Source of the DNA: Amycolatopsis jejuensis
Lineage (GTDB): Bacteria; Actinomycetota; Actinomycetes; Mycobacteriales; Pseudonocardiaceae
Reading direction: 5' to 3'
Length of the DNA stretch: 64,000 nucleotides
NCBI RefSeq assembly: GCF_000717335.1
Contig: NZ_JNYZ01000015.1
Location: 1-64,000, forward strand
Program-made: the position numbers and the translations under genes
Notes under the pieces: generated by a model
What the model was told of the DNA's origin: nothing
Seen by the model: only the letters and a program-made list of their open reading frames with translations
Database searches by the model: none
In this document: positions 27,158-54,241 of the stretch, piece after piece
How the letters are laid out: every line of letters starts with the position of its first letter
Position numbering within the stretch: the first letter of the stretch is position 1

Positions 27158-27262
27158 CTCGCGGTGATTCACTTCCATTTGGTGGGCGGTAACGCTCCGG
27201 AGGGGCAATACGTCGGCGACGAAACACGTCCGCTGTTGCGGAAAGCGGAGGAGCGAACCTTC

Positions 27263-30001: not shown

Positions 30002-30087
30002 TCTGCATCTCCTTCGCCAAGGTGGCACTAGGCCGCTCCAGCAGCCGCGGAACGGTGCAGTTCTTCGTCTGGGGAACTTACGGCGTC

Positions 30088-31554: not shown

Positions 31555-33015
31555 TCATCCGGCGCGGATCGGCTGTCCGGGGAGGACGCCGGGATCCAAC
31601 TGCCCGTCGGTGACGACCGGTGTTCCGGCGACGAGCAGGTGGCGGATGCCCGACGACGGGCGCGTGGGGTCGGTGACCGTGGCCCGGTCGGTGATCGTCG
31701 CCGGGTCCAGGACGACGATGTCGGCGTCGGCGCCGACCCCGAGATGGCCCTTGCGCCTGGCCGCTGCGCAGATCCCGTCGAGGACCCTCGCCGGCAAGTA
31801 GGAACAGCGCCGGAACGCCTCCAGCCAACTCCACCGCTTCTGTTCACGGACCATCAGCCGCCACGCCTTCGCGAACGTCCCCGCCGTGCGCGGATGGGTC
31901 CGCGCACCCGGCGGCAACGGCCACTCATCACTCTCGTGCGACCCGTCCGGCCAGGTCAGCCACATCGCATCACTGGCGACAATGCTGTCCGGGAACGCCA
32001 GCGCACGAAGCAACCTCGCGTTGTCGGCCTCGTCCCGCTCATCCAGAAAATGCACCAGACACTGCGTGGCCGGATCCTGCACACGGATCTCCCGCAACCG
32101 GGACACATCGGCGATACGTTCCCCAGTGTCCACGACAACCAGGTCGGACGGAGCCAAACCGGACACGGCCAGCCGTTCCGGAGCAAGGAAAAACGCGCCG
32201 ATCGCGGTGGAACCGAAACCGTACGGATACGCCTCCACCGTGACCTGCAACCCGTCACGACGGGCCTCATCGAGCGCACCGAGCACCCGGTCGACATAAC
32301 GACGTGACGTGCTGTTGACGTGACAATGATGCATCGCCGCACCCGCCTCCACCGCCGCACGAACGACCTCACCCGACCCGTCGATCGGCGTAGTCGGATC
32401 GGCCTCGACCAGCTCACGGACATGGGTGAACACCGGCACGCCGGCCCGGGCGGCCAGCCGGGCGACGTCCAGGAACTCACCAGGGTCGGTCCGCGGCGCA
32501 TACCCCTGCAAAACCCCGATCCCCAGCCCACCCACGGCCAGCTCGTCCTCCAGCAGCGACAACCACCGGCGACGCTCGGCACCGGTGGACGAGCGCTGCC
32601 ACCGCGACTCACCCACCAGCGCCAATGTCCCCGACGGCTCGACCCCGGTGTGCGCCAGGAACCGGGCACTCCCCCACGACGCCGAATACCCGTAATGCAA
32701 CGGCCGCCCACTCGCCGCCGCCGCGGAGTAGGCTCGCTCGACCCGCATCGCGCCGGCTTCGAGCTCCAGCGCGGTACACACCCCGTCCATCGCCTGCAAC
32801 CGATGCCCGGCCACCGAATCCACATGACTGTGCACATCGACGAACCCAGGCCCGACCACCAGCCCGGACACATCCACCACCACACTGTCTTCGGGCACCA
32901 CAAGATCTGCGCCGACTGCCCCCACCCGACCGCCACTGACCAGAACATCGGCGACCTCAAACAACCCAGTACCCGGATCACAGACGGTACCGCCCCGGAA
33001 CACCAAACCAGTCAA
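31555..33015 (-). CDS. N-acyl-D-amino-acid deacylase family amidohydrolase
   Basis: 486 residues. The N-terminal part has the beta-sandwich start of D-aminoacylases (LVFRGGTVCDPGTG) and the metal-binding VDVHSHVDS near residue 59. Further zinc-site histidines appear in FTHVRE and HHCHVNSTS, and the active-site aspartate in VASDAMWLTWPDGS. The C-terminus ends with the usual KGHLGVGADADIVVLDP. Relatives hydrolyse N-acyl-D-amino acids or dihydropyrimidine-like amides. A TTG start at 33015 is chosen for its AGGGGA upstream and correct N-terminus. It is the last gene of the PaaX-headed unit. Confidence 0.8.
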   Translation of the reverse strand: MTGLVFRGGTVCDPGTGLFEVADVLVSGGRVGAVGADLVVPEDSVVVDVSGLVVGPGFVDVHSHVDSVAGHRLQAMDGVCTALELEAGAMRVERAYSAAAASGRPLHYGYSASWGSARFLAHTGVEPSGTLALVGESRWQRSSTGAERRRWLSLLEDELAVGGLGIGVLQGYAPRTDPGEFLDVARLAARAGVPVFTHVRELVEADPTTPIDGSGEVVRAAVEAGAAMHHCHVNSTSRRYVDRVLGALDEARRDGLQVTVEAYPYGFGSTAIGAFFLAPERLAVSGLAPSDLVVVDTGERIADVSRLREIRVQDPATQCLVHFLDERDEADNARLLRALAFPDSIVASDAMWLTWPDGSHESDEWPLPPGARTHPRTAGTFAKAWRLMVREQKRWSWLEAFRRCSYLPARVLDGICAAARRKGHLGVGADADIVVLDPATITDRATVTDPTRPSSGIRHLLVAGTPVVTDGQLDPGVLPGQPIRAG

Positions 33016-33075
33016 CAGTCTTCCCCTTCGGCAATTTCGCGACAATGGCGACGCTGTCGGCTGCGGCGAAGGAGG

Positions 33076-33834
33076 CTACCTGGTTGCCGGATCCGGGTAC
33101 GGCTGCTCCAGCCGTTCGAGCACGGCGCGGGCGGCATCGTTGAATGCCGATCGAAGTCCGCGACGCTCCAGCATCGCGACCCCGCGCACAGTCGACTCTC
33201 CGGGCGAAGCGACCTCGCGCCGGGCTGCGATGGTGTCGCCTCCTCGCGACAGAAGGAGTTCTGCGGTGCCCGCCAGAGTGTGCAGGAACATTTCGGTGGC
33301 TTCCCGCTCCGGCAGTCCGTAACACATCGATGCATCGATTGCCGCCTCGGCAACCAGCGCGATATACGCGGGCATCACGCCACTTGTTGCGGTGGCGAGG
33401 TTCATCTGGTGCTCCGGCAGGACGACGACCCGCCCGAGACCGGACAGCAGCTCGGTCGCCGCCTCGCCGCCCTCGGCAACCGCGATCACGCCGCGGCGCA
33501 TTTGCACGGCCGTATTCGGCATGGTCCGCACCACGGTGGATTCCGGATACGCCGCCCGCAGTTCGCCGGTGGTGGTCGGCCCCAGTACCGAAATCACCAT
33601 TTTTCCGGCGGCATCCACCGAAGCGGCGATCTCCCGGAGCTGCCCTGGCCGATGTGCGAGCACGAGCACCTCGGCCGCCGCGGCCAGTGCGGCATTGTCC
33701 CGGAACGCCTCTCCCCCGAGCTCTTCGACGAGCGCCGCCGCTCGCCCGGAACCACTGTCGCTGGCGAGCACGGGTCCGCCCCATCCCCGTGCCATCGCCG
33801 TCGCCATACTTCCCGCACCGATGAAACCGATCAT
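33076..33834 (-). CDS. proC: Pyrroline-5-carboxylate reductase family protein
   Basis: 252 residues, close to the ProC length of about 270. The N-terminus is the NAD(P)-binding GFIGAGSMATAMARG. The middle has VVRTMPNTAVQMRRGV, and the C-terminal dimer domain has TATSGVMPAYIALVAEAAIDA followed by SPGESTVRGVAMLE, matching the family's proline-binding loop. It reduces P5C or a similar cyclic imine to the cyclic amino acid. Being buried in a peptide-catabolic operon, it may be a dedicated imine reductase rather than the housekeeping enzyme. It starts 30 bases after the peptidase. Confidence 0.82.
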   Translation of the reverse strand: MIGFIGAGSMATAMARGWGGPVLASDSGSGRAAALVEELGGEAFRDNAALAAAAEVLVLAHRPGQLREIAASVDAAGKMVISVLGPTTTGELRAAYPESTVVRTMPNTAVQMRRGVIAVAEGGEAATELLSGLGRVVVLPEHQMNLATATSGVMPAYIALVAEAAIDASMCYGLPEREATEMFLHTLAGTAELLLSRGGDTIAARREVASPGESTVRGVAMLERRGLRSAFNDAARAVLERLEQPYPDPATR

Positions 33835-33864
33835 TGCCGACTCCAGACATTCAATTCAGGGAAC

Positions 33865-36138
33865 TCACCGAGATTCGCCGTACAGCACTTCCATCGCAGC
33901 GTCACGCAACGGCCGTTTCGAGCTCATCACATGACCCGGCGGAGATTCCTTCCGCAGATTCCGGACGAAGTAGTCCCACCTCCTGCGCACCCAATAGTCT
34001 TCGGTTTCGAGCAGCGAATGATCAGTGTTGGGCAGGAGAAGGAAATCGAAGTCCTTGCCTGCGTCGATCAGGGCCTTCACGAACCTCATCGTGAGATCCG
34101 GGTACACGTTGTCGTCCATTTCGCCGTGCACCAGCAGCAGCCGCCCCTGCAACCGGCTCGCCAGCGCCGCATTGCTTCGCGCGAAGTAGTCCACTGTTCC
34201 GGGGCTGCCCACGAAACGCTCACCCCAGAGCGCATTGTAATAGCGCTCATCGTGATTGCCCGCAATGGACACGGCGGCGTGATAGGTGTCCGGATATTCC
34301 AGGATCGCGCGCGCCGCCGCATAACCGCCGCCGGAGACACCGTGGATTCCGACGTTGCCGAGGTCCAACCGGGGATAGCGGCCGGCCAGCTGCCGCAAAG
34401 CAGCGACGTGGTCGCTCAGGTGGGGTTCCGCTGCCGCCAGCCCCCGGCCGGCCCGCTGCATCGCCCGCGATCGCAACGGCGTACCGCGGGCATCGACCAC
34501 CATCACGGCGAAACCCAGCGCCGCCATCGAGGCAGCGTGAGCACTGGGCCACCGCGCTGTCGCGCTCGGGAATCGGTACGGCGCGGCGAGATGTTGCGGA
34601 CCGGGGTAGATGTCGTCGAGCACCGGCAACTTCTCCGCGCCCTCGCCGGGGAGGTACAGCAGCCCGTACAGTTTCGTCTCGCCATCAGCCGCCATGACGC
34701 TGAACCGCTCGGGTGGTGACCAGCCGGCCGCGCGCAGCGCCGTGACGTCGGCCGTCGCGAGGTCGAGCGTGTCCCGCCCGTTTTCGTCGAGCAGCCGGGT
34801 CGCCGGTGGCGTCTTCCAGTCCGATCGGACGTCGATGAAGAAACGGCCGGACGGGGCGGCGATCACGTCGTGGTCGAGGGTGTCGTGCGTCAGCCGGTCG
34901 ACGACCCCGGTGGCCAGGTGCACCCGGTAGAACTGCCGGGCATAGGGGTCGAGGCCGTTTTCCCGGCCCGCGCCGGTGAAATAGACGTGCTGACGTGTCT
35001 CGTCGACTCCGACGAGGTCTCGCACCAGCCAGGCGCCGGCCGTGACCGCGCGCTCCACCCGGCCGTCGCGCACCAGATACAGCTGACCCCATCCGCTTCG
35101 TTCGGACCACCACAGCACGTCTCCATTGGCCAAGACGTGCACATTGGGGCGATGGCAGAACTCGGGATGCGTCTGGACGTAATCTTCGGACGTCTCTTCG
35201 AAGAGAGTGGTCACCGCACCCGTGTCCGGGTCGATGGCCAGCAACGTCGCGCGATCGCCGCTTCGTGATTGGTCGACGTGGTAAACGCTGTCCCGGCCTG
35301 GCTGGCGCCACAGGCTGCCGGTCTGCAGCGGGGTCGCCCAGGGGCAGTCGATCGGCGCTCGCGACACCGGGGTCGTGGCACCGGTTGCCATGTCGACGAC
35401 GAGAAGTTCCGCTCGGGCCACCACCGCGTCGCCGGGATGTGCGTAGCGGTAGTGGTGCCGGCGCGGCCCTGACCCGTCCGGAGGCGATGACTGGCTCAGG
35501 TACGCATCCCGCATCCCGTCTTGGTGCAGGCGGTGGGTGACGACCCGGCGGGAGTCCGGCAACCAGAGCAGGACGGGTGGCAGCGGCAGGGCGTGCCGCT
35601 GGGCCAATGCGTTCGGCGTCGACGCGTCCGGGCCGATGGCGTAAGGCACCTCCGCGGTGCCGTCAAAGGTCACTTGCCGTCCGGTATCAGTGCGCGTGTC
35701 CCGGACCCACAGGTTGTGATCGTCGACGTAGGCAGCCAGCGTCCGATCCGGAGACAGCAGCTCACCCGGCCGGCGTACCTCGGGAGCAGGGCGATCCTGC
35801 AGCGCGGCGGTCGCGGGATTCCAGCGAAAACGCCGACCGCCCACTGTGAACGCGATCGTCGCGCCATCGCAGACGACATCGCCGATCCGCGGCGGAGCGC
35901 CCGGTGCGGTCCCTTCCGGACGGGGCAGCTGACCGGGCAGCAGCACGCCGGTCCGCTGCCGCGTCCGTGAATCGACGCGATAGACCGCGTCACCCGCTGC
36001 TTCGCGCACGGTGTAGCAGAAGTCGTCCGTACCGGACAGCCAGACGGGCTGCACGGTGTCGGAGAAAATGAGGTTGCGAAAATTCCGGGGCAGCAGCGAT
36101 TCGGCACGCCGGTAGGCACCGGCCGGCCCTTCATCCAT
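33865..36138 (-). CDS. S9-family serine peptidase (dipeptidyl-peptidase IV-like)
   Basis: 757 residues. The N-terminal ~500 residues form the DPP4-type beta-propeller (repeated WLPDSRRV, LLAIDPDTG and YFTGAGREN blades). The C-terminal alpha/beta hydrolase domain has the serine in GIHGVSGGGYAA near residue 616, the aspartate in HGEMDDNVYP and the histidine in NTDHSLLE. No signal peptide is visible, so it acts on imported peptides, removing N-terminal dipeptides or cleaving small oligopeptides. ATG at 36138 is used because GGGGG lies just upstream. It overlaps the SDR gene. Confidence 0.85.
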   Translation of the reverse strand: MDEGPAGAYRRAESLLPRNFRNLIFSDTVQPVWLSGTDDFCYTVREAAGDAVYRVDSRTRQRTGVLLPGQLPRPEGTAPGAPPRIGDVVCDGATIAFTVGGRRFRWNPATAALQDRPAPEVRRPGELLSPDRTLAAYVDDHNLWVRDTRTDTGRQVTFDGTAEVPYAIGPDASTPNALAQRHALPLPPVLLWLPDSRRVVTHRLHQDGMRDAYLSQSSPPDGSGPRRHHYRYAHPGDAVVARAELLVVDMATGATTPVSRAPIDCPWATPLQTGSLWRQPGRDSVYHVDQSRSGDRATLLAIDPDTGAVTTLFEETSEDYVQTHPEFCHRPNVHVLANGDVLWWSERSGWGQLYLVRDGRVERAVTAGAWLVRDLVGVDETRQHVYFTGAGRENGLDPYARQFYRVHLATGVVDRLTHDTLDHDVIAAPSGRFFIDVRSDWKTPPATRLLDENGRDTLDLATADVTALRAAGWSPPERFSVMAADGETKLYGLLYLPGEGAEKLPVLDDIYPGPQHLAAPYRFPSATARWPSAHAASMAALGFAVMVVDARGTPLRSRAMQRAGRGLAAAEPHLSDHVAALRQLAGRYPRLDLGNVGIHGVSGGGYAAARAILEYPDTYHAAVSIAGNHDERYYNALWGERFVGSPGTVDYFARSNAALASRLQGRLLLVHGEMDDNVYPDLTMRFVKALIDAGKDFDFLLLPNTDHSLLETEDYWVRRRWDYFVRNLRKESPPGHVMSSKRPLRDAAMEVLYGESR

Positions 36139-37069
36139 GGTCACCCCCGCCGTCCGGCGTGAACCAGTCCGTCATCACGGACGGCGCGATCAGCTTGCCG
36201 GGAAGCTCGGCATCGAGGCGGTCGAGATCCCAGCGTCCGGCCGCCGTGAGCCGGTGCCTCGGAACCGGCAGCGACGTGACGGCAAGTTCCCGCCCGACCA
36301 CCTGATACACCTGACCTTGTGCCGGGCACCGCGCATCGGCGAGCCAGGCGATCAGCGGGGACACATTCGCCGGGTCGTACTGGTCGAACTTCCCGGGCTC
36401 CGGCCGCATCGCGTCCTCGGCACCCTGCACGGTGGCGGCGATGCGGGTGCGCCCGGCCGGCGAGACTGTGTTCGACCGGACCCCGTAGCGCTCCCCCTCG
36501 ATCGCGACCGCATGGGACAACCCCAGTACGGCCAGCTTCGCGGAAGAGTAGTTCGCCTGCCCGAAATTCCCGACGAAGGCCGCCAGCGAACTGGTCATCA
36601 CGACGCTGCGGTCCTGCCTCCGGTTGTTCTTGGCCTGCTCGCGCCAATAGTTCATCGCGTGGTGGGTGGGCGCTGCGTGCCCCTTGAGATGGACGCGCAC
36701 CACCTCGTCCCAGTCCGATTCGGCCATGGTCACGAGCGCACGATCACGCACGATGCCGGCATTGTTCACCAGCACGTGCAGATCGCCGAACTCGTGCACC
36801 GCCAGGTCGATCATCTCGAGCGCCTGCGGCCAGTCCGCGACGTCATGTCCGCTCAACGCCGCCCGGCCGCCGTTGCGGCGGATTTCCTCCACGACCTGTG
36901 CCCCCGCCGCCGGAGCTGCGTCGTCCCGGGTGCCGTCGACGGCCGCTTCCACATCGTTGACGACGACGGCGGCGCCGTGCCGGGCCAGTTCCAGTGCGTG
37001 CGCGCGCCCCAGCCCCCGGCCGCTGCCGGTCACGATCGCCACCCGGCCGGCCAGCCTGCCGCCGCTCAT
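36131..37069 (-). CDS. Short-chain dehydrogenase/reductase
   Basis: 312 residues. Cofactor motif TGSGRGLGRAH near residue 14, NNAGIVRD near residue 94, and catalytic serine and YxxxK in MTSSLAAFVGNFGQANYSSAK. The sequence resembles the hydroxyacyl-CoA dehydrogenases of the MFE-2 group, including the insertion NDVEAAVDGTRDDAAPA. A C-terminal extension beyond the core follows the nucleotide fold. It likely oxidises a 3-hydroxyacyl-CoA in the acyl-chain steps of this operon, next to the acyl-CoA synthetase. The start overlaps the synthetase stop by ATGA. Confidence 0.85.
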   Translation of the reverse strand: MSGGRLAGRVAIVTGSGRGLGRAHALELARHGAAVVVNDVEAAVDGTRDDAAPAAGAQVVEEIRRNGGRAALSGHDVADWPQALEMIDLAVHEFGDLHVLVNNAGIVRDRALVTMAESDWDEVVRVHLKGHAAPTHHAMNYWREQAKNNRRQDRSVVMTSSLAAFVGNFGQANYSSAKLAVLGLSHAVAIEGERYGVRSNTVSPAGRTRIAATVQGAEDAMRPEPGKFDQYDPANVSPLIAWLADARCPAQGQVYQVVGRELAVTSLPVPRHRLTAAGRWDLDRLDAELPGKLIAPSVMTDWFTPDGGGDHG

Positions 37070-38526: not shown

Positions 38527-38532
38527 CTGCAG

Positions 38533-38949
38533 TCACCTCTGCGTGGGTTCGGGGGGAAGTGGCTCGAAAACCGGGACCGGCGGACCAGCCGGACGGTGCC
38601 GCCAGGCCACGCGGACGCGGTCTCCGATACTTACGGGCACAGATCCGGCGATGTTCGTCAGGATCCGTGGCCCTTCGGTCAGTTCGACCAGCGCCACCAC
38701 GTAAGGCGGGTCGAGGTGCTCGACGGTACGGAGGTGGACGGTCGTCTTCGAGTAGACGCGGCCGGATCCCGCCGCCTCGACCCACTCCAGATCGCCGGCG
38801 CCGCACTGAAGGCAGAACGGCCTCGGGTACAGCTGAAAGTTGCCGCAGCGCAAGCATTGTTGCAGCAACAAGCGCTGCGCGCGAGCGCCGTCCCAGTACG
38901 GTTTTGTCGTCGGGTCTTCGAATCGCTCGTCGAGCGCCGGCTCAGTCAC
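38533..38949 (-). CDS. Zn-ribbon OB-fold protein (DUF35)
   Basis: 138 residues. A zinc ribbon near the N-terminus has CLRCGN and CLQCGAG, followed by an OB fold (SGRVYSKTTVH, PPYVVALVELTEGPR, GDRVRVAWR). Proteins of this family are stable partners of thiolase-like enzymes; ChsH2 with Ltp2 in steroid side-chain degradation is the best known case. It overlaps the thiolase gene by eight bases, supporting a complex. No catalytic role of its own is expected. Confidence 0.88.
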   Translation of the reverse strand: MTEPALDERFEDPTTKPYWDGARAQRLLLQQCLRCGNFQLYPRPFCLQCGAGDLEWVEAAGSGRVYSKTTVHLRTVEHLDPPYVVALVELTEGPRILTNIAGSVPVSIGDRVRVAWRHRPAGPPVPVFEPLPPEPTQR

Positions 38950-40096
38950 GGGCCAGCACCACCGTTGCGGCGACCGAACCCAGCCCGCCGATCCCGTGGA
39001 CCACCCCGACTTGCGCGCCGGGGACCTGCCGGGCGGCAGCGTCTCCGCGAAGCTGACGTGTCGCCTCGATCAGCAGCTGTACCCCGAATGCGCCGGGATG
39101 GTTGTAGGAAAGCCCGCCACCGGAGGTCATCGAGGGAAGCGCTCCGCCGGGGGCCAGCCGTCCGTCGCGGACGAACTCTCCGCCCTCGCCTTTCGCACAG
39201 AAACCGAGATCCTCCAAGGCCATCAGGACGTTGATGGTCGTCGCGTCGTAGGGTTCGAAGACATCGACATCGCCGGGGACGATGCCGGCCATGGCGAAAG
39301 CGGCGCGTCCGGTCCTGACGCCGGGAGTTTCGGTGAGACTTGCGTGCTGGGAGATGTGCCAGGCGGTGTGATGTTCCGTGGCGGCAAGGACTCTGATCGG
39401 AGTGCGCGCCGCATCACGGGCTCGATCACGGGTCGTGAGGACGACAGCTCCGCCACCGTCGAGGAGCAGGCAGCAATCGAGCTTGGTCAGCGGCTCGCAC
39501 ACCGGTGGCGAATTCAGCACGTCGTCGACGGTGAGTGGTTCCCGGCGCCACGCTTGCGGGTTCAGCGCGGCCCAGCCACGCGCGGCCACCGCGATTTCGG
39601 CTAGCTGTTCCCGGGTCGTGCCGAACTCGTGCATGTGCCGCGCGGCGAACAGGGCGAACTGCCCCAGCGGAGCCGGAATCCCGTACGGCGCCTCGAACTG
39701 GGCCATCAGCGAGCCCGGCGCGCCGGCGTCACGTGATCGGATGCGTTTGCTCCGTTGCCGTGAGGCGAAAGCGATCAAGGCCACCGAGCAGTGCCCGGCA
39801 GCGAGGGCGAGCATCGCGTGGTGCACGTAGGCATCGAACGCGGCGCCGCCGAGGTCGCTGGAATCCGCGTAGTCGGGGCAAATGCCGAGATACTCACCCA
39901 GCTGCACAGTCCCCTCGTCACCCATGTAGTTGGTGAACAGCCCGTCGACGTCACGGAAGCTCAGCCCGGCCTCGTCGAGGGCGGCCCGGCTTGCCAGCGC
40001 AGCCATCGACAGCTCGGAGTGATCGGTGACGATGCCCAGTGGAGCTTCCGCGACACCCGCGATGCAGATCTCGTCCCTGCGAGCGGAGGTGGACAT
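38942..40096 (-). CDS. Thiolase-fold lipid-transfer-type protein (possible Ltp2-like aldolase)
   Basis: 384 residues with the SCP-x/Ltp thiolase fold: ICIAGVAEAPLG at the start, DSSDLGGAAFDAYVHHAMLALAAG at the nucleophile region, DVDVFEPYDATTINVLMALEDLGF and the terminal HGIGGLGSVAATVVLARD. The usual nucleophile cysteine of degradative thiolases is not in place, which is typical of the Ltp group that performs retro-aldol cleavage. It is paired with a DUF35 gene. It probably shortens an acyl-CoA chain. Whether it cleaves by thiolysis or by retro-aldol reaction is not settled. Confidence 0.82.
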   Translation of the reverse strand: MSTSARRDEICIAGVAEAPLGIVTDHSELSMAALASRAALDEAGLSFRDVDGLFTNYMGDEGTVQLGEYLGICPDYADSSDLGGAAFDAYVHHAMLALAAGHCSVALIAFASRQRSKRIRSRDAGAPGSLMAQFEAPYGIPAPLGQFALFAARHMHEFGTTREQLAEIAVAARGWAALNPQAWRREPLTVDDVLNSPPVCEPLTKLDCCLLLDGGGAVVLTTRDRARDAARTPIRVLAATEHHTAWHISQHASLTETPGVRTGRAAFAMAGIVPGDVDVFEPYDATTINVLMALEDLGFCAKGEGGEFVRDGRLAPGGALPSMTSGGGLSYNHPGAFGVQLLIEATRQLRGDAAARQVPGAQVGVVHGIGGLGSVAATVVLARD

Positions 40097-41451: not shown

Positions 41452-42106
41452 AGCCGGTCACGTAGTCCGGTGGCGGCGCGGGATCCGTGGATTGCGGCGG
41501 GCCGAAAGCCAGGTTGACGGGGACGACACCGGACCAGGCACCGGCGGGCTCGGTGCCGTCGGTGTCGCCGGTGTCCTTCTCGATCGGCATTCCGGTGCGT
41601 TCCTTGAACGACGACTGGGCAAGGCTGAGCCGGTGGATTCCGGTGGCGGCGAGCTCCCGGCGGCTCGGCGGTTCGCAGTCACGCGCCCGTCCGGGGGCGA
41701 TGTGCTCGAGGAGAGCATCGAGTACCCGCAGTTTTTCCTCGGTGCCGGTGACCGCGCCCAGTTCTCCGTGGACGACCACACTGCGGAAGTTCACCGAGTG
41801 GGTGAAGTAGCGCCGCCCCAGTACGATGCCGTCCAGCACGGTGACGGTCAAGCAGACGTTCGCCGGCGCGCGCTCCAGACCGCGGAACGGACCGGCCCCC
41901 GGGGAACCGTGCAGATACACGTCATCGCCGATCCGGACGTGCGTCATCGGAAGCACCACCGGCCGGTGATCGACCTCGAAGGCGAGATGGGAGACGAGCG
42001 CCTCGTCGACCAGGCGGTGAATCCGGTGCTTGTCGTAGCTGAACCGTTCGGGCCGCCGCGTCGGCCGGGTCAAGGGGGTCTGCGGGTATTCCGGCCGCGC
42101 GCTCAT
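41411..42106 (-). CDS. Pyridoxamine 5'-phosphate oxidase-fold FMN protein
   Basis: 231 residues with the split-barrel flavin fold: YDKHRIHRLVDEALVSHLAFE, then VVLPMTHVRIGDDVYLHG and SVVVHGELGAVTG. The branch resembles nitroreductase-like F420/FMN proteins rather than PdxH. It may reduce or oxidise an intermediate, or act as a flavin-dependent protein of unknown purpose. It starts within the end of the beta-lactamase-fold gene B (ATGA overlap). Functional assignment is weak. Confidence 0.78.
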   Translation of the reverse strand: MSARPEYPQTPLTRPTRRPERFSYDKHRIHRLVDEALVSHLAFEVDHRPVVLPMTHVRIGDDVYLHGSPGAGPFRGLERAPANVCLTVTVLDGIVLGRRYFTHSVNFRSVVVHGELGAVTGTEEKLRVLDALLEHIAPGRARDCEPPSRRELAATGIHRLSLAQSSFKERTGMPIEKDTGDTDGTEPAGAWSGVVPVNLAFGPPQSTDPAPPPDYVTGYARPHPGAARAHA

Positions 42107-43478
42107 CGCGCCACCCGCCGTGCCGCGAACGCGCCGTTGAGCAGATATTCGGCACGTCCGTCAGGGCCGAGGACGAAGGCGAGCTCCCACCGATGGTCGT
42201 CGGTCAGCTCGTCGGCGTCGGGCAGGAAGCGATGGTCCCCCAGTGCCTCGAGCGAAGCCTCGATGACGCGGCCGGCCGAGCCGGGTTCGAAGTTGTCGGC
42301 GGTGAGGTGGTGCCGCCGGGCCAGCAGCCGGCCGTCCGGGCGTTCCCGGATCTCCCATTCCTGACCGTAGCTGCGGTAGATACCCCGGTATACGTCGGGA
42401 TCGACCTCGCCGGCTTGCCGCCCGGTGGCCGGGCCCGGCCCGCCCATGCCAAGGTGAGCGGCCACGCCCTGCAAGATCTGTGCGGCAAAAGGGTATCCCG
42501 CCTGCGGCACGTTGACGGTGGTCGCGATGGTCACGTCGTGTTCGGGGATCCACAGCAGCGTCGACGAGCCACCGAGGTTGGTTCCCGAATGCCCGTAGAG
42601 GTCCGTCCCGTTCCACTTCCGGTGGTATGCGCCGACTCCCCAGTCGTCTGCGAACAGCTTGGCCGGCACGGCTACCTGGGGTTCCTGCATGAGCGCGACG
42701 GCGCGGGGAGAAAGAACCTGGTGCCCGCCAGGGCCCTTGCCTTCGCGCAGCATCATCTGCCCGAACCGGGTCAGCTCGCTCGCCGATGCGCAGAGCGTCG
42801 TACCGGCCGGTCCCATGCCCCGGCTCAGAATCCACGGGCGCCGGAACTCCGGCGGGTCGGCACGCGGAACGTGCCCTACGGCGACCGAGAAGTAGACCTG
42901 GTCCTCCGGCCTGGTGCAGGAATGCCGCATGTCGAGCGGGCCGAGGAGCTCCAGCCGGAGCAGGTCGTCCCAGCTGCGGCCGGTGAGCGTTTCGAGCAGG
43001 TGACCGAGGACGATCGTCGACGCGTTGCTGTAGCCGAACTGCTTGCCGGGCGGGGAAATCAGCGGGATGTCGGCGAGGATCCGGACGTATTCGGCGATGG
43101 CGTCCGCCCCGCACCCGGTGTCCCGGTACGGCCCGTTGTCCATTCCGCTGCTCATGGACATCAGGTGCCGTGGCGTTATCTCTTGCGCGGCGCTGTCCTC
43201 GGCGAACCTGGCGGCCGGCAGGTAACGGGCCACGGGAACGTCGATGTCGAGTTCGTTCCGATCCGCGAGCCGCAGCGCCAGTGCGGCGGTGAAGAGCTTC
43301 GTGGTCGAACCGACCTGGAAGATCGTATGGCCGGTGACCGGAGCCCGGGTGCCGAGGTTGGCGTATCCGCACTGCGCTTCCCGCAGCTGGTCTCCCTGCC
43401 GCACCGCCGCTTGCGCGCCGACGATGTCGAGGGCTTCGGCACTGGTCCGGACAAGATCGCACAGGTCGTGGTGGGTGA

Positions 43479-43482
<4 letters not shown>
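42103..43482 (-). CDS. Beta-lactamase-fold serine hydrolase B
   Basis: 459 residues starting at TTG 43482, which overlaps the stop of the ATPase gene (TTGA). The three class C-type motifs are complete: VGSTTKLF (S-x-x-K) near residue 58, FGYSNAST (YxN) near residue 145 and YGHSGTN in the third position. A C-terminal lipocalin-like extension of about 100 residues follows. No signal peptide is visible. Candidates are an esterase, a D-stereospecific aminopeptidase or a beta-lactam hydrolase; the context of imported peptides favours the second. The long open frame extending upstream is only chance. Confidence 0.82.
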
Positions 43483-44272
<790 letters not shown>

Positions 44273-44276
<4 letters not shown>

Positions 44277-46153
44277 GCCACACCGCCGCGCCGGGTGAGC
44301 GGGGCGGACTTCTCCGCTACCCGCAAGCAGGCGCTCGAATGGTCCGGCGTGACGGGGAGCGGCCGGGGCTCCCACGAGGCGCAGTCCGGCATCGCTACCG
44401 GACAGGCGTGCCGGAACGGGCAGCCGTGGCTGTCGAGGTCCGGCGTCGGCTCGGCTTGCTCGAGGTCCTCGGCGGCACCCAATGGCGTGTCGATCGCGGG
44501 CGCGCTGCTGATCAATTGCCGGGTGTAGGGGTGGGCGGGAGCCGACAGCACCGTCTCGGCCGGTCCCTGTTCGACGACCGTCCCGCGATACATCACCAGT
44601 ACGCGACGGCAGACCTGGGCAATCACGCTGATGTCGTGGGAAATGAGCAGCAGTGTGAGGTTCCGCTCCTCGTTGAGATCCACGAGCAGCTCGAGAATGC
44701 TCGCTTGCACCGTGACGTCGAGCGCCGTCGTCGGTTCGTCGGCAATGAGCAGTTCGGGATCTCCGGCCAGCGCCATCGCCAGGAGAGCACGCTGGCGCAT
44801 CCCGCCCGACAGCTCATGGGGTCGTTGCCGCATCCGCTGCTGCGGCGCATCGAGAGCGACCCGGCCGAGCTCGCTCGTCGCCCGCGCGACCGCGGCCCGC
44901 CTGCCGAGGTGCCGGTGCCGCCGGAGTCCTTCGGTCAGCTGGGTGCCGACCCGCAGCATCGGGTTGAACGAGGTGCTCGGGTCCTGCGGCACATAGGCGA
45001 CCCGGAAGAACCGGGGGTCGTCCTTGCGGGAGCAGCCGAGCGCGCTCCGGCCCCGGAACGTCAACGCGCTCGCGCTGAGGCCGGCGCGGGCAGGCAGCAG
45101 TCCGGCGAGCGCAAGAGCCAGCGTGCTCTTGCCACTGCCCGATTCCCCGACGATCCCGCAGCGCTCCCCCGGCGTCAGCCCCACGGTGACGTCCGCAACC
45201 GCAACAGCGCGACCGTAGGTCACGCGCAGATTCGCGGCGGCGATCTGGGTGTTCGCGTCGGCAGGCCCGGTGAGCTGCCGCACGGGACGCGCGTCCGGCT
45301 CGGTTCGGCGGCTGGGTCCCCGCCGCCGGGGGTCGGCCATCGCAGCGAGACGTTCGCCGAGCGCGTTCAGTGCCAGCCCGGTGATGACGATGCCGGCTGC
45401 CGGACCGACCGGGGCGATCGGGTTGCCGAACATCTCCGCAATCCCGGCGGTCAGCATGGTGCCCCAGTCACCGGCGCCGGTGGTGGCAGGCGAACCGAGC
45501 CCGAGAAAGCTCAGCCCGGCCAAGGCAATCAGGCTCCCGCTCGCGGTGACCGACGTCAGGATGATCAGGGTCGCGCTCATGTTGGGCACGAGGTGCCGGG
45601 CAATGAGCCTGCCTCGCGGCACGGTCAGCAACCGCAGTGCGACCATGAATTCCCGGCCGCCCAGCGAGGCGGAGATGGTGGCGACGGTGCGCGCGAACTC
45701 GGGAGCGATCGCCAGCGCGACCGCGATGACCGCACTGGTCGTGCCGACCCCGAGGATCGCGATCAGCAGCACCGCGAGGATGAGCGGCGGGAACGAAACC
45801 GCCAGATCGATGCCGCGCATCAGCAGGCCGCGTAACGCCGGGGGAAGCACGCTGACCACAGCGCCGGCAACGGTGCCCAGCACCGCGCCGAGGGCGGTGG
45901 CCAGCAGGGCGAACGCAATGCTGTTGCGCCCCGCAGCGATGGTCCGGATCAGAATGTCCCGCCCGAAGGTGTCGGTGCCCAGCGGGTGCTGCACCGACGG
46001 GCCGAGCCGGGCTTGTGCCGGGTCCAGGTGGGTGGCCATGCTGCCGAGCACTTCGGGTGCGACGGCAAGAAACAGCAGCCATCCGAAGACCAGGAACAGC
46101 AGGAACACCTGCCGGGGACCGAGAGAACCGATCCGCGCTCGAAAAGTGGTCAT
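44273..46153 (-). CDS. Peptide ABC transporter permease-ATPase fusion (DppC-DppD)
   Basis: 626 residues in one frame. Residues 1 to about 285 form a DppC-type permease with a hydrophobic segment after the N-terminal tail, five further segments and the GTDTFGRDILIR start of the transmembrane domain. Residues from about 305 form a DppD-type ATPase: Walker A GESGSGKST, signature LSGGMRQR, Walker B LLIADEPTTALD, and an oligo_HPY tail with CPFRHACPVAMPDC. In most bacteria these are separate genes. The join lies in a proline/arginine-rich linker with no stop or internal break. The start at 46153 overlaps the DppB stop. Confidence 0.9.
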
Positions 46154-47136
46154 GACCGGCCCACCAGTGATTTCGGGTCCAGGATGCCGAGCACGACGTC
46201 GACCAGCGTGTTGATCACGATGACCCCGGCGCCGAGCACGAGCACAATCCCCTGGACAGTGGGGTAATCCCGGTTCAGCACCGCCGTGACGACGGCATTT
46301 CCGAGACCGGGCCAGGCGAACAAGCTCTCGATGATGATGGTCCCGCCGAGCATCGAACCGAACAGCAGGCCGGCGATGGTCAGGCTGCCGGTGATGACGT
46401 TGGGCAGGAGATGACGGAGGTAGAGAATGCGGTTCGGGAGCCATTTCGACCGCGCGACCCGCAGATAGTCCTCGTCGAATGCGGCGAGTCCCTCCGTGCG
46501 CACGATCCGCGTGAGGAGCGCGATCGGCCGCAGTGCCAATGCCAGTGCAGGCAGCACGAATGCGGCGGCGGAAGCGTTGCCTCCGGCGGGAAGTACACGC
46601 GTGGTCACGGCCAGCAGCAAGACGAGGTAGGTGCCGACGACGTAGTCGGGGATCGACGCGACCAGCCCGGTCACCGCGGTGAACGAGCGTTCCCACCGCC
46701 TGCCGAGCCGCCTGGTGAGCGCAATGCTCGCCAGGCCGAGTACGACACTCGCCACGACGATCAGCAGGAGCGACACCCCGGCCAGCGAGACCGTGATCGG
46801 CAGGCGTTGCGCGATCAAGGCCCGGACCGGCTGGTTCGTGCTGAACGAGGTACCGAGGTCGCCGTGCACCAGACCGGAAAGGTAGCCGGTGTACTGGCTC
46901 CACAGCGGCTGGTCGAGACCGAGGGACCGGCGGATCTGCTCCACCTGCGGTCCGGTTGCGGAAATGCCCGCGACGTTGCGTGCCGGGTCGCCCGGAGCCA
47001 CCCGGAGGGCAAGGAACACCACCCCGGACAGGATGACCAGGCTCACGACGAGGGTGCACAGCCGCCGGGCGACGGAAACGACGACCGGGGTGAGCCGGGC
47101 TCCGGGGGAAACCGGCGCCAGTGTGGTGGTCGTCAT
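46150..47136 (-). CDS. Peptide ABC transporter permease (DppB type)
   Basis: 328 residues, six membrane segments. The N-terminal helix is followed by the periplasmic portion with GDPARNVAGISATGPQVEQIRRSLGLDQPLW, a hallmark of DppB/OppB. The EAA-type loop contains YLRHLLPNVITGSLTI, and FAWPGLGNAVVTAVLNRDYP is conserved near the C-terminus. It forms the channel with the permease half of the fusion protein. It overlaps the binding-protein gene by one base. Confidence 0.92.
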   Translation of the reverse strand: MTTTTLAPVSPGARLTPVVVSVARRLCTLVVSLVILSGVVFLALRVAPGDPARNVAGISATGPQVEQIRRSLGLDQPLWSQYTGYLSGLVHGDLGTSFSTNQPVRALIAQRLPITVSLAGVSLLLIVVASVVLGLASIALTRRLGRRWERSFTAVTGLVASIPDYVVGTYLVLLLAVTTRVLPAGGNASAAAFVLPALALALRPIALLTRIVRTEGLAAFDEDYLRVARSKWLPNRILYLRHLLPNVITGSLTIAGLLFGSMLGGTIIIESLFAWPGLGNAVVTAVLNRDYPTVQGIVLVLGAGVIVINTLVDVVLGILDPKSLVGRS

Positions 47137-48719
47137 CAGCCGCTCACCAGGAAGCCGGTCGGCACGAGGGAGGTTCCGGTTTCGGTGCCGACCTCGAAGG
47201 ACACGTTCTTGCCGAAATACTCGGCAGTGTCGTAGTACAACGGGATTTCGTTGACCTGGTTGTTCAGTTTCTCTTCGGCCGCGCGCCAGTGCGCGCAGCT
47301 GGTGCCGGCCGGGCCGGTCAGTGCTTGCTTGGCGAGCGAGTCGTACTCCGCATTGGAGATCGAGCTGAAGTTGGTCCCGGCCGGCGGTGCGTCGCCGGAA
47401 TGGTAGGGCAGCAACAGGTTCGGTGAGGACACGCCCAGCTGCGCAAGGATGGCGACGTCCCAGTTGCCACCGCTGAAAAGGGTCTGGACCACGCTGGTGC
47501 CGCTCGGCGTGTTCACCGTGACGTCGACACCGGCCTTCCGCCAGGCGTCGGCAAGGAATTGCACCGTGTCCGATTCACCGGAGACACCGTCACCGGACGC
47601 CAGCAGATTCACGTGGAGGTTCTTTCCGCGCAGCGCCGCCGCCGCTGCCTGCGGGTCGTATTTCGCGATCGTGTTGCCGGCAGCCAGGTCATAGCAGTCG
47701 GCGCTGTCCAGAATCGTGCTGGGCGCCGGCTTCGCGTAGCCCTCCTGGACCACTTTGGGGAGCGTGGTCCGGTCGATCGCCTCGGCCAACGCCCTTCGCA
47801 CGGCGGCGTCGGCCACCGGAGAACCGTGCTTCTGGTTGAAGTAGAGCATCATGTTCGATCGGCTGAACGCCTGCGAGCTGGTCGCGACTGCCTTCGCGCG
47901 TTGCCGGTTCGAGCCGGTCAGAGCCGTGACGTCGAGTTGCCCGCTGGTCAGGAGGTTCGCGGCGGTGGTGTCACTGCCGACCACCTTGAGCATGATCGAC
48001 TTCGGCGACTCCGTGTACCACTGCGTATGGCCGCCGGGACCCCAGGAGTAGCCGGGCCGCGCGGTCAGTTCATATTCGTTGCCCGGGACGGCTTTGGTGA
48101 GCGTGTACGGGCCGGTCCCGTGCGCTTCGTGACTGAGCTTGCCCGGGTTCGCCAGCCCGGCCGGGCAGACGATCCCGGGATACGTCGCAAGGCCCTGCAG
48201 GAATTCACTGTTGGGCGAGGGCAAGGTCAGCGTGAGAGTTCCGGCGGAGTCGTCCGCGGCCGCCTTGACGTTGTTCGTGCCCAGGTAGACGCCCGCGAAC
48301 GGCGCGACCGTCTTGGGGTCGGCAATGCGAGTGAAGTTGGCCGCCACGTCACTCGCGGTCAGGGTGGTTCCGTCCGAGCAGGTCACTCCTGGCGTGACCG
48401 TGAATTGGTAGCTCGTCGGGGAAAGCTGTTTCCACGCCGAAGCGATGCCGCTGACGATCCGGTGGTCGTCGCCCATGGCGAGCAACGTGTCGTACAAGTA
48501 GAAGCCGACCTCCCTTGCCACCGCTTGGTTGGTGGTGTGCGGGTCCAGGTTGCCCGGGTCAGCGGTCAGCCTGACCGCGATCGGCCTTCCGGCAGGCTCG
48601 CCGGGGTGACCACTCGGCGGCGCCGCCTTGCTTTCCGGGGCCGCGGCTCCGGCGCACCCGGTCAGCCCGAGGGCGACCGCCAGCAGGACCGCAACGCTCC
48701 ATTTACCGCGTCTGCTCAC
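47136..48719 (-). CDS. Peptide ABC transporter substrate-binding lipoprotein (family 5)
   Basis: 527 residues with a lipoprotein signal: SVAVLLAVALGLTGC, the cysteine near residue 22. The mature protein has the family-5 pattern: LDPHTTNQAVAREVGFYLYDTLL, the LTASDVAANFTRI segment, and AVRRALAEAIDRTTLPKV in the middle lobe. It captures peptides or similar ligands outside the membrane for the DppBCDF-type importer. GTG at 48719 overlaps the regulator's stop (GTGA). Confidence 0.9.
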   Translation of the reverse strand: MSRRGKWSVAVLLAVALGLTGCAGAAAPESKAAPPSGHPGEPAGRPIAVRLTADPGNLDPHTTNQAVAREVGFYLYDTLLAMGDDHRIVSGIASAWKQLSPTSYQFTVTPGVTCSDGTTLTASDVAANFTRIADPKTVAPFAGVYLGTNNVKAAADDSAGTLTLTLPSPNSEFLQGLATYPGIVCPAGLANPGKLSHEAHGTGPYTLTKAVPGNEYELTARPGYSWGPGGHTQWYTESPKSIMLKVVGSDTTAANLLTSGQLDVTALTGSNRQRAKAVATSSQAFSRSNMMLYFNQKHGSPVADAAVRRALAEAIDRTTLPKVVQEGYAKPAPSTILDSADCYDLAAGNTIAKYDPQAAAAALRGKNLHVNLLASGDGVSGESDTVQFLADAWRKAGVDVTVNTPSGTSVVQTLFSGGNWDVAILAQLGVSSPNLLLPYHSGDAPPAGTNFSSISNAEYDSLAKQALTGPAGTSCAHWRAAEEKLNNQVNEIPLYYDTAEYFGKNVSFEVGTETGTSLVPTGFLVSG

Positions 48720-49615
48720 GAGGCATCGCCTTTCTTCCGTCCGGCGGTCGCCGGACGATCGTCGAGAACGCTCAGTACGTGGTGGCCGGCAGGCTCTTTC
48801 AGCTCGGCGATGAGGTCGGTCACCCGGTCCCGGACGCGGTGGCCCACCCACCCGCGGGGAAGCACCGAGGCAGGCAAACGAGGGTCGCCCTGCACGATGA
48901 GCCGCCACTTGTTGTGCACCAGGGTCAGCCGGGCGAACGCCTCCCGCGGGGTCAAGGGTTTCGTTCCGGTGGTGCTTTCGTCCAGGTCCGTCAGGAATTC
49001 CCGGTACTGGGCTTCGAGGGCAGGCAGGTCCCAGCAGCGCGCGGCGAGATCACTGTCCCCGATGTAGTTCGCGGTGAACAGATCGACCTCGTCGGCCACC
49101 CCGAGCTGGTCCACGAGGCGGTTCACCCGGGTACCGTCGCTCGGCGCAATCCACAGTCCCGGCGCGAGACTGCCGAAACCCAGTCTCGTCAACGTCTTCC
49201 GGAGCAAGTGCCGGTCCGCGCGCCGCGATTCGGGGATGGAGAAGCTGACCAGGGTCCACGAGACCGGATCCGTGTCGTTCGCGGCGTGGAACAGCTCGGG
49301 GTAGCGCATCCGCATGAACTCTTCCCACTGCCGCGTGACCGCATACCCGTTCGCCTTCCCTTCCCGCCGCGATTCCACGAACCCGCCCCGGCTCAGCCGA
49401 TGCAGGCCGGTGCGTGCACTGCTCGGCACCACGTCGAGGTCACCCAGCAGGGAGACGTACGCGGCCGTCGGCAGCCAGCCGCCGCGATCGAGCACGTAGA
49501 GCAGGCACAGGTCGGTGATCAGGCTGTTCTGCGGGGTCGACGGCGTGAGCCAGTCGATCGGGGGCGTGTCCCGGCGGGCACCATCTCCGTGGCTCAGATT
49601 CGTGACGTCCGTCAT
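48716..49615 (-). CDS. PaaX-family transcriptional regulator
   Basis: 299 residues in the PaaX plan: N-terminal winged helix (SLITDLCLLYVLDRGGWLPTAAYVSLLGDL, SSARTGLHRLSRGGFVESRREG), the middle domain with SIPESRRADRHLLRKTLTRLGFGSLAPGLWIAP, and the C-terminal domain ending in FARLTLVHNKWRLIVQGDPRLPASVLP. The best known member represses phenylacetate genes and responds to phenylacetyl-CoA. It is the first gene of a co-directional unit down to 31555 and is divergent from the D-serine-dehydratase-like gene, 94 bases apart. An acyl-CoA signal made by the operon's synthetase is a likely inducer. Confidence 0.88.
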   Translation of the reverse strand: MTDVTNLSHGDGARRDTPPIDWLTPSTPQNSLITDLCLLYVLDRGGWLPTAAYVSLLGDLDVVPSSARTGLHRLSRGGFVESRREGKANGYAVTRQWEEFMRMRYPELFHAANDTDPVSWTLVSFSIPESRRADRHLLRKTLTRLGFGSLAPGLWIAPSDGTRVNRLVDQLGVADEVDLFTANYIGDSDLAARCWDLPALEAQYREFLTDLDESTTGTKPLTPREAFARLTLVHNKWRLIVQGDPRLPASVLPRGWVGHRVRDRVTDLIAELKEPAGHHVLSVLDDRPATAGRKKGDAS

Positions 49616-51880: not shown

Positions 51881-52027
51881 ATTGTGCCGCGGTGAACGCC
51901 TCGATGATGCCCGCACCTCCGAGCGGGGCAGCTTCGTCGTCGACGGTCGGTGGGTCAAGATGCCCAGCGGCAGCCGCCCACCCGGACCGGCCGATCGAGG
52001 CCGCCCAACCCGCGTGCGGAGCCGCTG

Positions 52028-53260
<1,233 letters not shown>

Positions 53261-53341
53261 CGTGACCACCTTTCGGGCAGGTCGACGCTAGGCCACCCCC
53301 GGCCCCGAAATCTTGAACAGGATGTGCACCGCTCCCGCGGC

Positions 53342-54145: not shown

Positions 54146-54241
54146 GGCGAGGAACCTACCCCGCGACCACCTCGCCTCCGGGAGAGCCTTCCGGTCTCGA
54201 GATGGCCGGGGGTGGTCCTTTCTCCGTGGTGGCACAGCCTG

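What the first reader, a model, noticed from the sequence alone, without database searches (positions are those of the whole stretch)
31555..49615. Fifteen-gene PaaX-headed operon combining peptide import, serine amide hydrolases, D-amino-acid deacylase and acyl-CoA chain cleavage
Seen: from the PaaX gene down to the N-acyl-D-amino-acid deacylase all genes share one strand, mostly with 1-41 base overlaps and with gaps of 6, 30 and 60 bases. The set is a DppBCDF-type importer, two cytoplasmic beta-lactamase-fold hydrolases, an S9 peptidase, a D-aminoacylase, a P5C-type reductase, an FMN-fold protein, and an acyl arm (acyl-CoA synthetase, SDR, thiolase with DUF35). A D-serine-dehydratase-like gene is divergent. 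Inference: an acylated D-residue-containing peptide, lipopeptide or beta-lactam-type amide is imported, de-acylated and cut, the acyl part is taken through CoA thioesters, and PaaX senses one of these. I know of no described pathway with this composition.
Basis: partly seen in the sequence, partly recalled or inferred. Interest (0 to 1): 0.78.

Follow-up and report, generated by a model that had tools for sequence, protein, structure and literature searches.

The report
Peptide-uptake operon with CoA-linked aldolase arm
A soil actinomycete carries a tightly packed fifteen-gene operon that appears to import blocked peptides and take them apart; it is a diverged relative of a common operon in the same genus that holds a well-known racemase whose natural job is debated, which makes that job easy to test.

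Summary
In detail: fifteen minus-strand genes run from a PaaX-family regulator (49615) to an amidohydrolase (AMH, 31555), overlapping by 1-41 bases with gaps of 6, 30 and 60. The full set was found in no other genome searched: its second CubicO hydrolase occurs in 1 of 390 family and 1 of 394 class genomes. The importer/hydrolase core is not private. In the genus (Amycolatopsis) the order AMH > M20 > N-acylamino-acid racemase > CubicO > SBP > DppB > DppCD > DppF > S9::CubicO recurs. AMH and racemase lie within 5 kb in 57 of 80 genomes; the order held in the eight such loci fetched from other genomes, two cut short. The racemase is of the T-1-60 NAAAR/OSBS type; a separate MenC-type gene exists in 80 of 80. 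The window is a diverged sibling without racemase and M20 but with CoA ligase, SDR, DUF35 and a 'thiolase' lacking the nucleophilic Cys, probably a Sal/Ltp2-like retro-aldolase. Best reading: import of N-acylated, D-residue peptides, deacylation, then CoA-dependent cleavage of the acyl part. Substrate unknown; no biochemistry done.

The parts
49710..50942 (+). divergent PLP enzyme, D-serine dehydratase / D-threonine aldolase-like (fold III)
   Evidence: PF14031 + PF01168; best PDB match 3gwq D-serine deaminase E 3e-58, then D-threonine and D-3-hydroxyaspartate aldolases; KHPC motif seen in the sequence (its zinc role is recalled)
48716..49615 (-). PaaX-family regulator, first gene
   Evidence: PaaX, PaaX_M, PaaX_C; TIGR02277 121.5 bits against a cut-off of 264.55, so not PaaX proper
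47136..48719 (-). SBP_bac_5 substrate-binding lipoprotein
   Evidence: PF00496; LTGC lipobox; 32-37% to the genus operon SBP
46150..47136 (-). DppB-type permease
   Evidence: 42-53% to the genus operon
44273..46153 (-). fused DppC-DppD (permease + ATPase), 626 aa
   Evidence: PF00528, PF00005, oligo_HPY in one frame; 41-47% to the genus operon, one frame there too
43479..44276 (-). DppF-type ATPase
   Evidence: 45-49% to the genus operon
42103..43482 (-). CubicO-1 serine hydrolase (beta-lactamase fold)
   Evidence: PF00144; SxxK 59, YxN 151, HSG 298; nearest genus relatives (49-50%) lie beside an S9 gene in G034 and G044
41411..42106 (-). FMN split-barrel protein (Pyridox_ox_2)
   Evidence: PF12900
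40096..41451 (-). CubicO-2 serine hydrolase with N-terminal beta domain
   Evidence: PF00144; AF2 model pLDDT 73; structural neighbours include 6-aminohexanoate-dimer hydrolase; four homologs of 43-48% over >=93% of the length, the next at 33%
38942..40096 (-). thiolase-fold protein, predicted retro-aldolase
   Evidence: NF004811 over cut-off; Cys->Gly, YDAT, NHP
38533..38949 (-). DUF35 / ChsH2 zinc-ribbon OB partner
   Evidence: PF01796 + PF12172
37066..38526 (-). acyl-CoA ligase
   Evidence: PF00501/PF13193; best PDB match bile acid-CoA ligase 4lgc, E 6e-72
36131..37069 (-). SDR, (3R)-hydroxyacyl-CoA dehydrogenase / MFE-2 type
   Evidence: PF00106; best PDB match 2et6, E 1.5e-81
33865..36144 (-). 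S9 / DPPIV_N serine peptidase
   Evidence: triad kept, both substrate N-terminus-binding Glu absent
33076..33834 (-). pyrroline-5-carboxylate reductase-like NAD(P) reductase
   Evidence: PF14748 + PF03807; all 15 PDB matches are pyrroline carboxylate reductases
31555..33015 (-). N-acyl-D-amino-acid deacylase-like amidohydrolase (AMH, PRK09061 group), last gene
   Evidence: NF006560 597 bits over cut-off 340; ligands; relatives of 61-68% across the genus, more distant paralogs at 50-58%

Best explanation
An inducible catabolic operon, diverged from the genus-wide Amycolatopsis N-acylamino-acid-racemase operon, for N-acylated peptides or amides that contain D residues. Inferred steps: (1) the SBP/DppB/DppCD/DppF importer brings the compound in. 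(2) The S9 enzyme, which lacks the residues that need a free N-terminus, and the two CubicO hydrolases, all apparently cytoplasmic, cut its amide (or ester) bonds. (3) The amidohydrolase frees the acyl group from a (D-)amino acid; the P5CR-like and FMN proteins handle an imine or other redox-altered residue; the divergent PLP enzyme removes a D-hydroxy-amino acid such as D-Ser. (4) The freed acid, probably already beta-hydroxylated since no acyl-CoA dehydrogenase or hydratase is among the genes, is made into a CoA thioester, is oxidised or reduced by the SDR, and is split by the Cys-less thiolase-fold/DUF35 pair by retro-aldol cleavage. (5) The PaaX-family protein represses the operon until a CoA thioester of this route appears. 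Shown: gene content, packing, relatedness to the genus operon, active-site residue changes. Inferred: every reaction, the substrate, the inducer.
For: Tight single-strand packing. Shared gene set with the genus operon: AMH 63-67%, SBP 32-37%, DppB 42-53%, fused DppCD 41-47%, DppF 45-49%, CubicO 32-38%. That operon also carries a T-1-60-type NAAAR/OSBS and an M20 hydrolase; AMH and NAAAR within 5 kb in 57 of 80 genomes. S9 and CubicO are in one open frame in six fetched genus loci and at own C5 (1125 aa), a sign that they act together. Another genus member (G001) has SBP-DppB-DppC-ATPase-M19-M19-S10-S9-CubicO on one strand. The Cys->Gly and YDxx signature is in the window protein and all 23 homologs aligned; DUF35 lies in the same stretch in 18 of 20 other thiolase loci. 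A second THIO-DUF35-SDR-ligase set sits beside an amino acid permease in the same genome (L124).
Against: The window lacks both the racemase and the M20 hydrolase. The amidohydrolase has Ala where D-aminoacylase has its Cys zinc ligand; so do 17 of 18 genus relatives aligned, the other having Ile. In the thiolase-like protein the general acids of the known aldolases are not kept: Ala for Cys304 of CtSal, and His at the place of CtSal Gln352, which PMC12329534 equates with Tyr344 of TcLtp2; MAFFT alone puts a window Tyr opposite Tyr344, so this point depends on the alignment and the reaction is not settled. Seven more distant AMH paralogs (48-59%) have no SBP, DppB or CubicO hit nearby. In this genome the AMH-M20-NAAAR trio (C27) and the CubicO-SBP-Dpp-S9::CubicO half (C5) lie on different contigs. 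In 17 of the 57 genomes no CubicO-1 relative (E <= 1e-60) lies within 20 kb of AMH. No promoter or operator was found. No enzymology.
Confidence: 0.5

Rival explanations
1. The substrate is a peptidomimetic or antibiotic-type amide rather than an acyl peptide, for example a beta-lactam or a beta-hydroxy-gamma-amino-acid inhibitor of the statine type, and the operon detoxifies and eats it.
For: Two beta-lactamase-fold enzymes; structural neighbours of CubicO-2 include amide hydrolases and penicillin-binding-protein-type esterases. A beta-hydroxy-gamma-amino acid would need a CoA ligase and a retro-aldolase. Neighbouring genes also cut unusual amides: M19 dipeptidase and hydantoinase/oxoprolinase at 54625-59388.
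Against: CubicO-1 scores far below every class C beta-lactamase cut-off listed (25 of 43 families shown) and CubicO-2 matches none of them. No signal-like N-terminus was seen by eye (no predictor run), and CubicO proteins act on many esters and amides. No direct hint of the compound.
Confidence: 0.2
2. A composite: a genus-type importer/hydrolase core into which an unrelated acyl-CoA module was inserted. The two halves share transcription but serve different substrates.
For: The acyl module alone recurs without importer or hydrolases: all four genes in 6 of 20 other loci, with no SBP, CubicO, S9 or AMH hit in any of the 20, and in the same genome at C43 with 41-61% identity. The full set was found nowhere else.
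Against: The acyl module sits in the middle of the operon with overlaps of 1 and 14 bases (8 from the ATG) at its two ends, between CubicO-2 and S9, which suggests selection for joint expression.
Confidence: 0.25
3. A biosynthetic or tailoring operon: the thiolase-fold/DUF35 pair makes a C-C bond (aldol or acyl transfer), and the hydrolases and P5CR-like enzyme trim or release a product.
For: Thiolase-fold/DUF35 pairs also do acyl transfer in PhlABC (named in PMC12329534, passage; a PhlC chain is among the weaker PDB matches). The P5CR-like and FMN proteins fit tailoring.
Against: A binding-protein-dependent importer with its own lipoprotein, a D-amino-acid-directed PLP enzyme and a PaaX-type regulator point to uptake and breakdown. 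No carrier protein, NRPS or PKS among the fifteen genes.
Confidence: 0.1
4. General scavenging of D-amino-acid peptides from cell walls (muropeptides), with the acyl arm dealing with the lactyl or another small acid.
For: D-peptidases and DD-peptidases are among the PDB matches of CubicO-1, behind an esterase; D-serine dehydratase-like gene; D-Glu deacylase is the best PDB match of the amidohydrolase.
Against: No amino-sugar or murein enzyme was recognised among the fifteen genes; the CoA arm has no known role in murein recycling.
Confidence: 0.1

Closest known systems
Genus-wide Amycolatopsis operon AMH > M20 > NAAAR/OSBS > CubicO > class A-type hydrolase > SBP > DppB > DppCD > DppF > S9::CubicO (found here)
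   Same: Same amidohydrolase group (63-67%), same importer with fused DppCD, same order SBP-B-CD-F followed by a CubicO-bearing hydrolase gene, S9 and CubicO partners
   Different: Window lacks NAAAR, M20, PucR and the class A-type hydrolase; has PaaX, a second CubicO of another kind, the FMN and P5CR-like proteins and the CoA-ligase/SDR/aldolase/DUF35 arm; S9 and CubicO are separate genes
NSAR D-to-L amino acid conversion pathway (Geobacillus type; recalled, not read)
   Same: N-acyl amino acids as intermediates
   Different: No racemase, succinyltransferase or L-desuccinylase among the fifteen genes
Steroid side-chain aldolases CtSal-CtShy(DUF35) and TcLtp2-ChsH2(DUF35) (PMC12329534, abstract and passages)
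   Same: Thiolase fold with DUF35 partner, Gly at the nucleophilic Cys place, Tyr of the YDxx motif
   Different: YDAT rather than YDCY/YDHF; His of NHP at the place of CtSal Gln352; no steroid genes recognised among the fifteen
Own-genome acyl module at C43 (L124)
   Same: THIO 61%, DUF35 60%, SDR 49%, ligase 41%, same strand
   Different: Next to an amino acid permease and a GNAT-like gene; no hit to importer or hydrolase genes in the stretch
PaaX repressor of the paa operons
   Same: All three PaaX domains
   Different: 121.5 bits against an equivalog cut-off of 264.55; no phenylacetate genes in the operon

Membership tests
Amycolatopsis NAAAR-type operon | AMH of the PRK09061 group together with SBP-DppB-DppCD-DppF and CubicO/S9 hydrolases | tested here: met
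Amycolatopsis NAAAR-type operon | N-acylamino-acid racemase and M20 hydrolase next to AMH | tested here: not met
   AMH in the window has no NAAAR within 5 kb; neither family among the fifteen genes
Thiolase (3-ketoacyl-CoA thiolysis) | nucleophilic Cys in the N-terminal half | tested here: not met
   Gly in the window protein; Cys present in 7yvy and BbsB in the same alignment
Sal/Ltp2-type aldolase | Gly at the Cys place, Tyr of YDxx, DUF35 partner | tested here: met
   residue roles from PMC12329534 (passages)
Sal/Ltp2-type aldolase | general acid: Cys of YDCY (Sal) | tested here: not met
   Ala in YDAT
Sal/Ltp2-type aldolase | general acid: Tyr344 (Ltp2) | tested here: inconclusive
   phmmer and the CtSal Gln352 correspondence give His; MAFFT puts a window Tyr there
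Sal/Ltp2-type aldolase | aldolase activity on a beta-hydroxyacyl-CoA | not testable with these tools
   needs enzymology
D-aminoacylase / N-acyl-D-amino-acid deacylase | HxH, His220, His250, Asp366 | tested here: met
   (numbering and roles recalled)
D-aminoacylase / N-acyl-D-amino-acid deacylase | Cys96 zinc ligand | tested here: not met
   Ala in window (LEAG for GNCG); Cys in none of 18 genus relatives aligned
DPP IV / prolyl tripeptidyl peptidase (S9) | Ser-Asp-His triad | tested here: met
DPP IV / prolyl tripeptidyl peptidase (S9) | two Glu that bind the free N-terminus (Glu205, Glu636 of PTP; role recalled) | tested here: not met
   absent in window and in 14 of 14 homologs; at Glu205 phmmer gives His and MAFFT Arg in the window, at Glu636 both give Asn
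Class C beta-lactamase | curated NCBIfam cut-offs | tested here: not met
   CubicO-1 55.1 bits against 415 for bla_class_C; none of the four families matched by CubicO-2 is a class C beta-lactamase
PaaX equivalog | TIGR02277 cut-off | tested here: not met
   121.5 against 264.55 bits
Dpp/Opp peptide importer | SBP_bac_5, two permease domains, two ATPases | tested here: met
Dpp/Opp peptide importer | peptide as the bound ligand (nickel, opines and others use the same families) | not testable with these tools
   needs binding assay

The most novel reading that the evidence does not exclude
The window operon and the genus NAAAR operon are two branches of one undescribed actinomycete system for importing and dismantling N-acylated peptides of mixed D/L configuration. 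In the common branch the T-1-60-type NAAAR/OSBS acts in vivo as a racemase of N-acyl amino acids, not as a menaquinone enzyme. In the window branch that racemase route has been replaced by direct deacylation plus a CoA ligase and a Cys-less, YDAT-type retro-aldolase with DUF35, a use of the Sal/Ltp2 kind of aldolase outside steroid breakdown.
Probability: 0.35. Interest if true: 0.75.

Novelty: new variant of a known kind. Interest (0 to 1): 0.58.

Why it matters
The Amycolatopsis N-acylamino-acid racemase is a much-cited case of enzyme promiscuity, whose biological role was stated to be o-succinylbenzoate synthesis (PMC4215206, passage). Its genomic setting in most of the genus genomes held (57 of 80 with AMH beside it; in the eight such loci fetched from other genomes also an M20 hydrolase, a peptide importer and serine hydrolases), with a separate MenC-type gene in all 80 genomes, points to the racemase role and gives a direct knock-out test. 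The window adds a diverged branch that couples peptide uptake to a Cys-less thiolase-fold enzyme, which would widen the known use of DUF35 aldolases.

Tried and rejected
Chain-shortening by a true thiolase: rejected on the missing Cys. A DPP-type aminopeptidase for the S9 gene: rejected on the missing Glu pair. Class C beta-lactamase: rejected on cut-offs. Acyl-module loci elsewhere carry no importer-SBP, DppB or hydrolase hits; ABC ATPase-like hits in 3 of 20. Operator search in the divergent gap: nothing. Rfam at gathering scores: nothing. Literature searches, judged by their listings and a few passages, showed no paper on this operon; only openly licensed papers are searchable and one NAAAR-family paper asked for was not held.

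Full report
WHAT IS THERE. Frame-specific GC and Pfam/NCBIfam scans confirm fifteen minus-strand genes between 49615 and 31555. 5' to 3': PaaX-family regulator; SBP_bac_5 lipoprotein; DppB; fused DppCD; DppF; CubicO-1; Pyridox_ox_2 FMN protein; CubicO-2; thiolase-fold protein; DUF35; acyl-CoA ligase; SDR; S9/DPPIV_N peptidase; P5CR-like reductase; PRK09061-group amidohydrolase (AMH). Eleven of the fourteen junctions are overlaps (1-14 bases, one of 41); the gaps are 6, 30 and 60. A D-serine-dehydratase-like PLP gene is divergent at 49710. No Rfam match at gathering scores and no tRNA in the window.

WHERE IT COMES FROM. The own genome is 10.1 Mb in 136 contigs.

HOW RARE. CubicO-2 has four relatives of 43-48% identity over at least 93% of its length, two of them named Streptomyces; the next full-length one is at 33% (215 proteins at E <= 0.001 of 7999 candidates scored from 5.8 billion). 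A profile of these finds only the own genome in 394 class genomes (E <= 1e-70) and 390 family genomes (46 genera, E <= 1e-60). The thiolase-fold protein has close relatives in 2 of 80 genus genomes (own, twice; G052; E <= 1e-85) and in 19 of 394 class genomes, own included (E <= 1e-95). All 20 places outside the own genome were fetched and compared: DUF35 is in the same stretch in 18, all four acyl genes in 6, and SBP, DppB, CubicO, S9, AMH, P5CR-like, FMN or PaaX hits in none; ABC ATPase-like hits in 3 (three stretches were cut short by contig ends).

THE CORE IS A GENUS-WIDE OPERON. AMH relatives (E <= 1e-70) occur in 60 of 80 genus genomes, CubicO-1 relatives (E <= 1e-60) in 49 of 80, the enolase-type racemase (E <= 1e-100) in 63 of 80. 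In 57 of 80 an AMH gene lies within 5 kb of the racemase gene, and in 40 of 80 (own window included) within 20 kb of a CubicO-1 relative; 17 of the 57 are not among the 40. Of 69 AMH hits, 11 have no racemase hit within 5 kb, the window's among them; one of the 11 (L234) has racemase pieces beside it. In the eight AMH-racemase loci fetched from other genomes the order is AMH > M20 > racemase > (PucR and a class A-type hydrolase in two) > CubicO > class A-type hydrolase > SBP > DppB > DppCD > DppF > S9::CubicO, one strand; two of the eight stretches end before the last genes. S9 and CubicO share one open frame of 1102-1449 aa in six of these loci (Pfam on one). Own genome: AMH > M20 > racemase on C27, without the importer, and CubicO > SBP > DppB > DppCD > DppF > S9::CubicO (open frame 1125 aa) on C5. 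G009 (L222) and G008 (L233) show AMH with the importer but without the racemase. Seven more distant AMH paralogs (L226-L232, 48-59%) have no SBP, DppB or CubicO hit nearby, two of them an ABC ATPase-like hit. So the window looks like a further, diverged copy of the importer/hydrolase core.

THE RACEMASE. The enolase-type protein of G042 passes TIGR01928 (302 against 200.65 bits). Its 97% match P0121 was folded (pLDDT 80.6) and is 98% identical to 1SJA/1SJB, the T-1-60 NAAAR/OSBS; the own C27 copy is 91% identical to that of G042. PMC4215206 (two passages read) says its biologically relevant function was found to be OSBS. Yet all 80 genomes have another MenC-type match (TIGR01927, best E 4e-31 to 4e-26, none over that model's cut-off), none at a racemase place, 67 of 80 in open frames of 312-322 aa. 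In the two genomes tested it passes the MenC equivalog NF002782 (437 and 439 against 288 bits) and lies by groEL and an AfsR-type gene. The setting therefore favours N-acyl-amino-acid racemisation. Against it: the listed kcat/KM on N-acetylmethionine is low (1111 and 350 M-1 s-1; PMC8142540, passages), though the native acyl group is unknown; and the M20 protein scores below the NCBIfam cut-offs listed, so L-deacylase is only a family guess. This is inference from context.

ACTIVE SITES. Thiolase-fold protein: Gly at the nucleophilic Cys place and Tyr in YDxx in the window protein and all 23 homologs aligned. In CtSal the Gly was taken to exclude thiolysis and the Tyr is the retro-aldol base (PMC12329534, abstract and 12 passages). 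The window has YDAT; its NHP His aligns with CtSal Gln352 (spacing from YDCY checked), while MAFFT puts a window Tyr opposite Tyr344 of TcLtp2; the general acid is open. SDR: best PDB match (3R)-hydroxyacyl-CoA dehydrogenase 2et6. Ligase: bile acid-CoA ligase 4lgc first. S9: triad kept, both N-terminus-binding Glu of prolyl tripeptidyl peptidase missing in the window and 14 of 14 homologs (the role of these Glu is recalled). AMH: HxH, two His and Asp kept; the Cys ligand is Ala in the window and absent in 18 of 18 genus relatives aligned (17 Ala, 1 Ile; L232 and the AMH loci L190-L208 were not used). CubicO-2 model (pLDDT 73): PBP-type esterase, PIB-1 and 6-aminohexanoate-dimer hydrolase fill the first 24 structural matches, 22-30% identity.

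OTHER S9 SETTINGS. S9 relatives are common (84 of 100 relatives at E <= 0.001), but the best outside the own genome is 42%. Fourteen S9 neighbourhoods were fetched: importer genes beside S9 in two (L107, own L118), a CubicO-1 relative beside S9 in two (L108, L109), and in L107 also M19, M19, S10 and CubicO. Of the other ten, L112 has a ligase-like hit and L113 ABC ATPase-like hits; the rest show only S9 above 60 bits.

HOW IT MOST LIKELY WORKS. Import, cleavage of blocked peptide bonds, deacylation, CoA activation and aldol cleavage of the acyl part, D-hydroxy-amino-acid removal, with PaaX-type derepression by a CoA thioester. All reactions are inferred from families and residues. I give 0.5 to this outline and less to any named substrate.

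NOVELTY. Gene kinds are known; the composition is new as far as I could search, and the core is a recurring operon for which the listings of my paper searches showed no description.

Noticed in passing
L209-L224 (genus loci); L238:9022-9960 and L239:8343-9281: The T-1-60-type NAAAR/OSBS gene sits beside AMH in 57 of 80 genus genomes, in a peptide-uptake operon in the eight other-genome loci fetched, while a separate MenC-type match exists in 80 of 80: an argument about the enzyme's disputed native role.
   Followed up: yes
L215:352-3660 and relatives in L210, L212, L214, L218, L224; L225:15131-18505: S9 peptidase fused to a CubicO beta-lactamase-fold domain in one open frame.
   Followed up: partly
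window 21981-30028 (-): Second amide-type cluster downstream: SsuA-like binding protein, ATPase, permease, carbon-nitrogen hydrolase, PTE-family hydrolase, PLP decarboxylase-like, SnoaL-like, another binding protein; lower GC (0.595-0.65).
   Followed up: partly
window 52028-62029 (-): Upstream cluster: PALP-family PLP enzyme, AraC regulator, M19 dipeptidase, hydantoinase/oxoprolinase A and B, P450-ferredoxin fusion; the long + strand ORF 51950-55039 over it has no Pfam or NCBIfam match and looks spurious.
   Followed up: partly
window 30432-30626 (+): Fragment of a Mutator-family transposase between the operon end and the downstream cluster.
   Followed up: no
L124 (own C43:58000-77900): Paralogous THIO-DUF35-SDR-(GNAT-like)-CoA ligase set next to an amino acid permease.
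   Followed up: partly
L107 (G001 C1:1227000-1246900): Another one-strand peptide set: SBP-DppB-DppC-ATPase-M19-M19-S10-S9-CubicO.
   Followed up: partly
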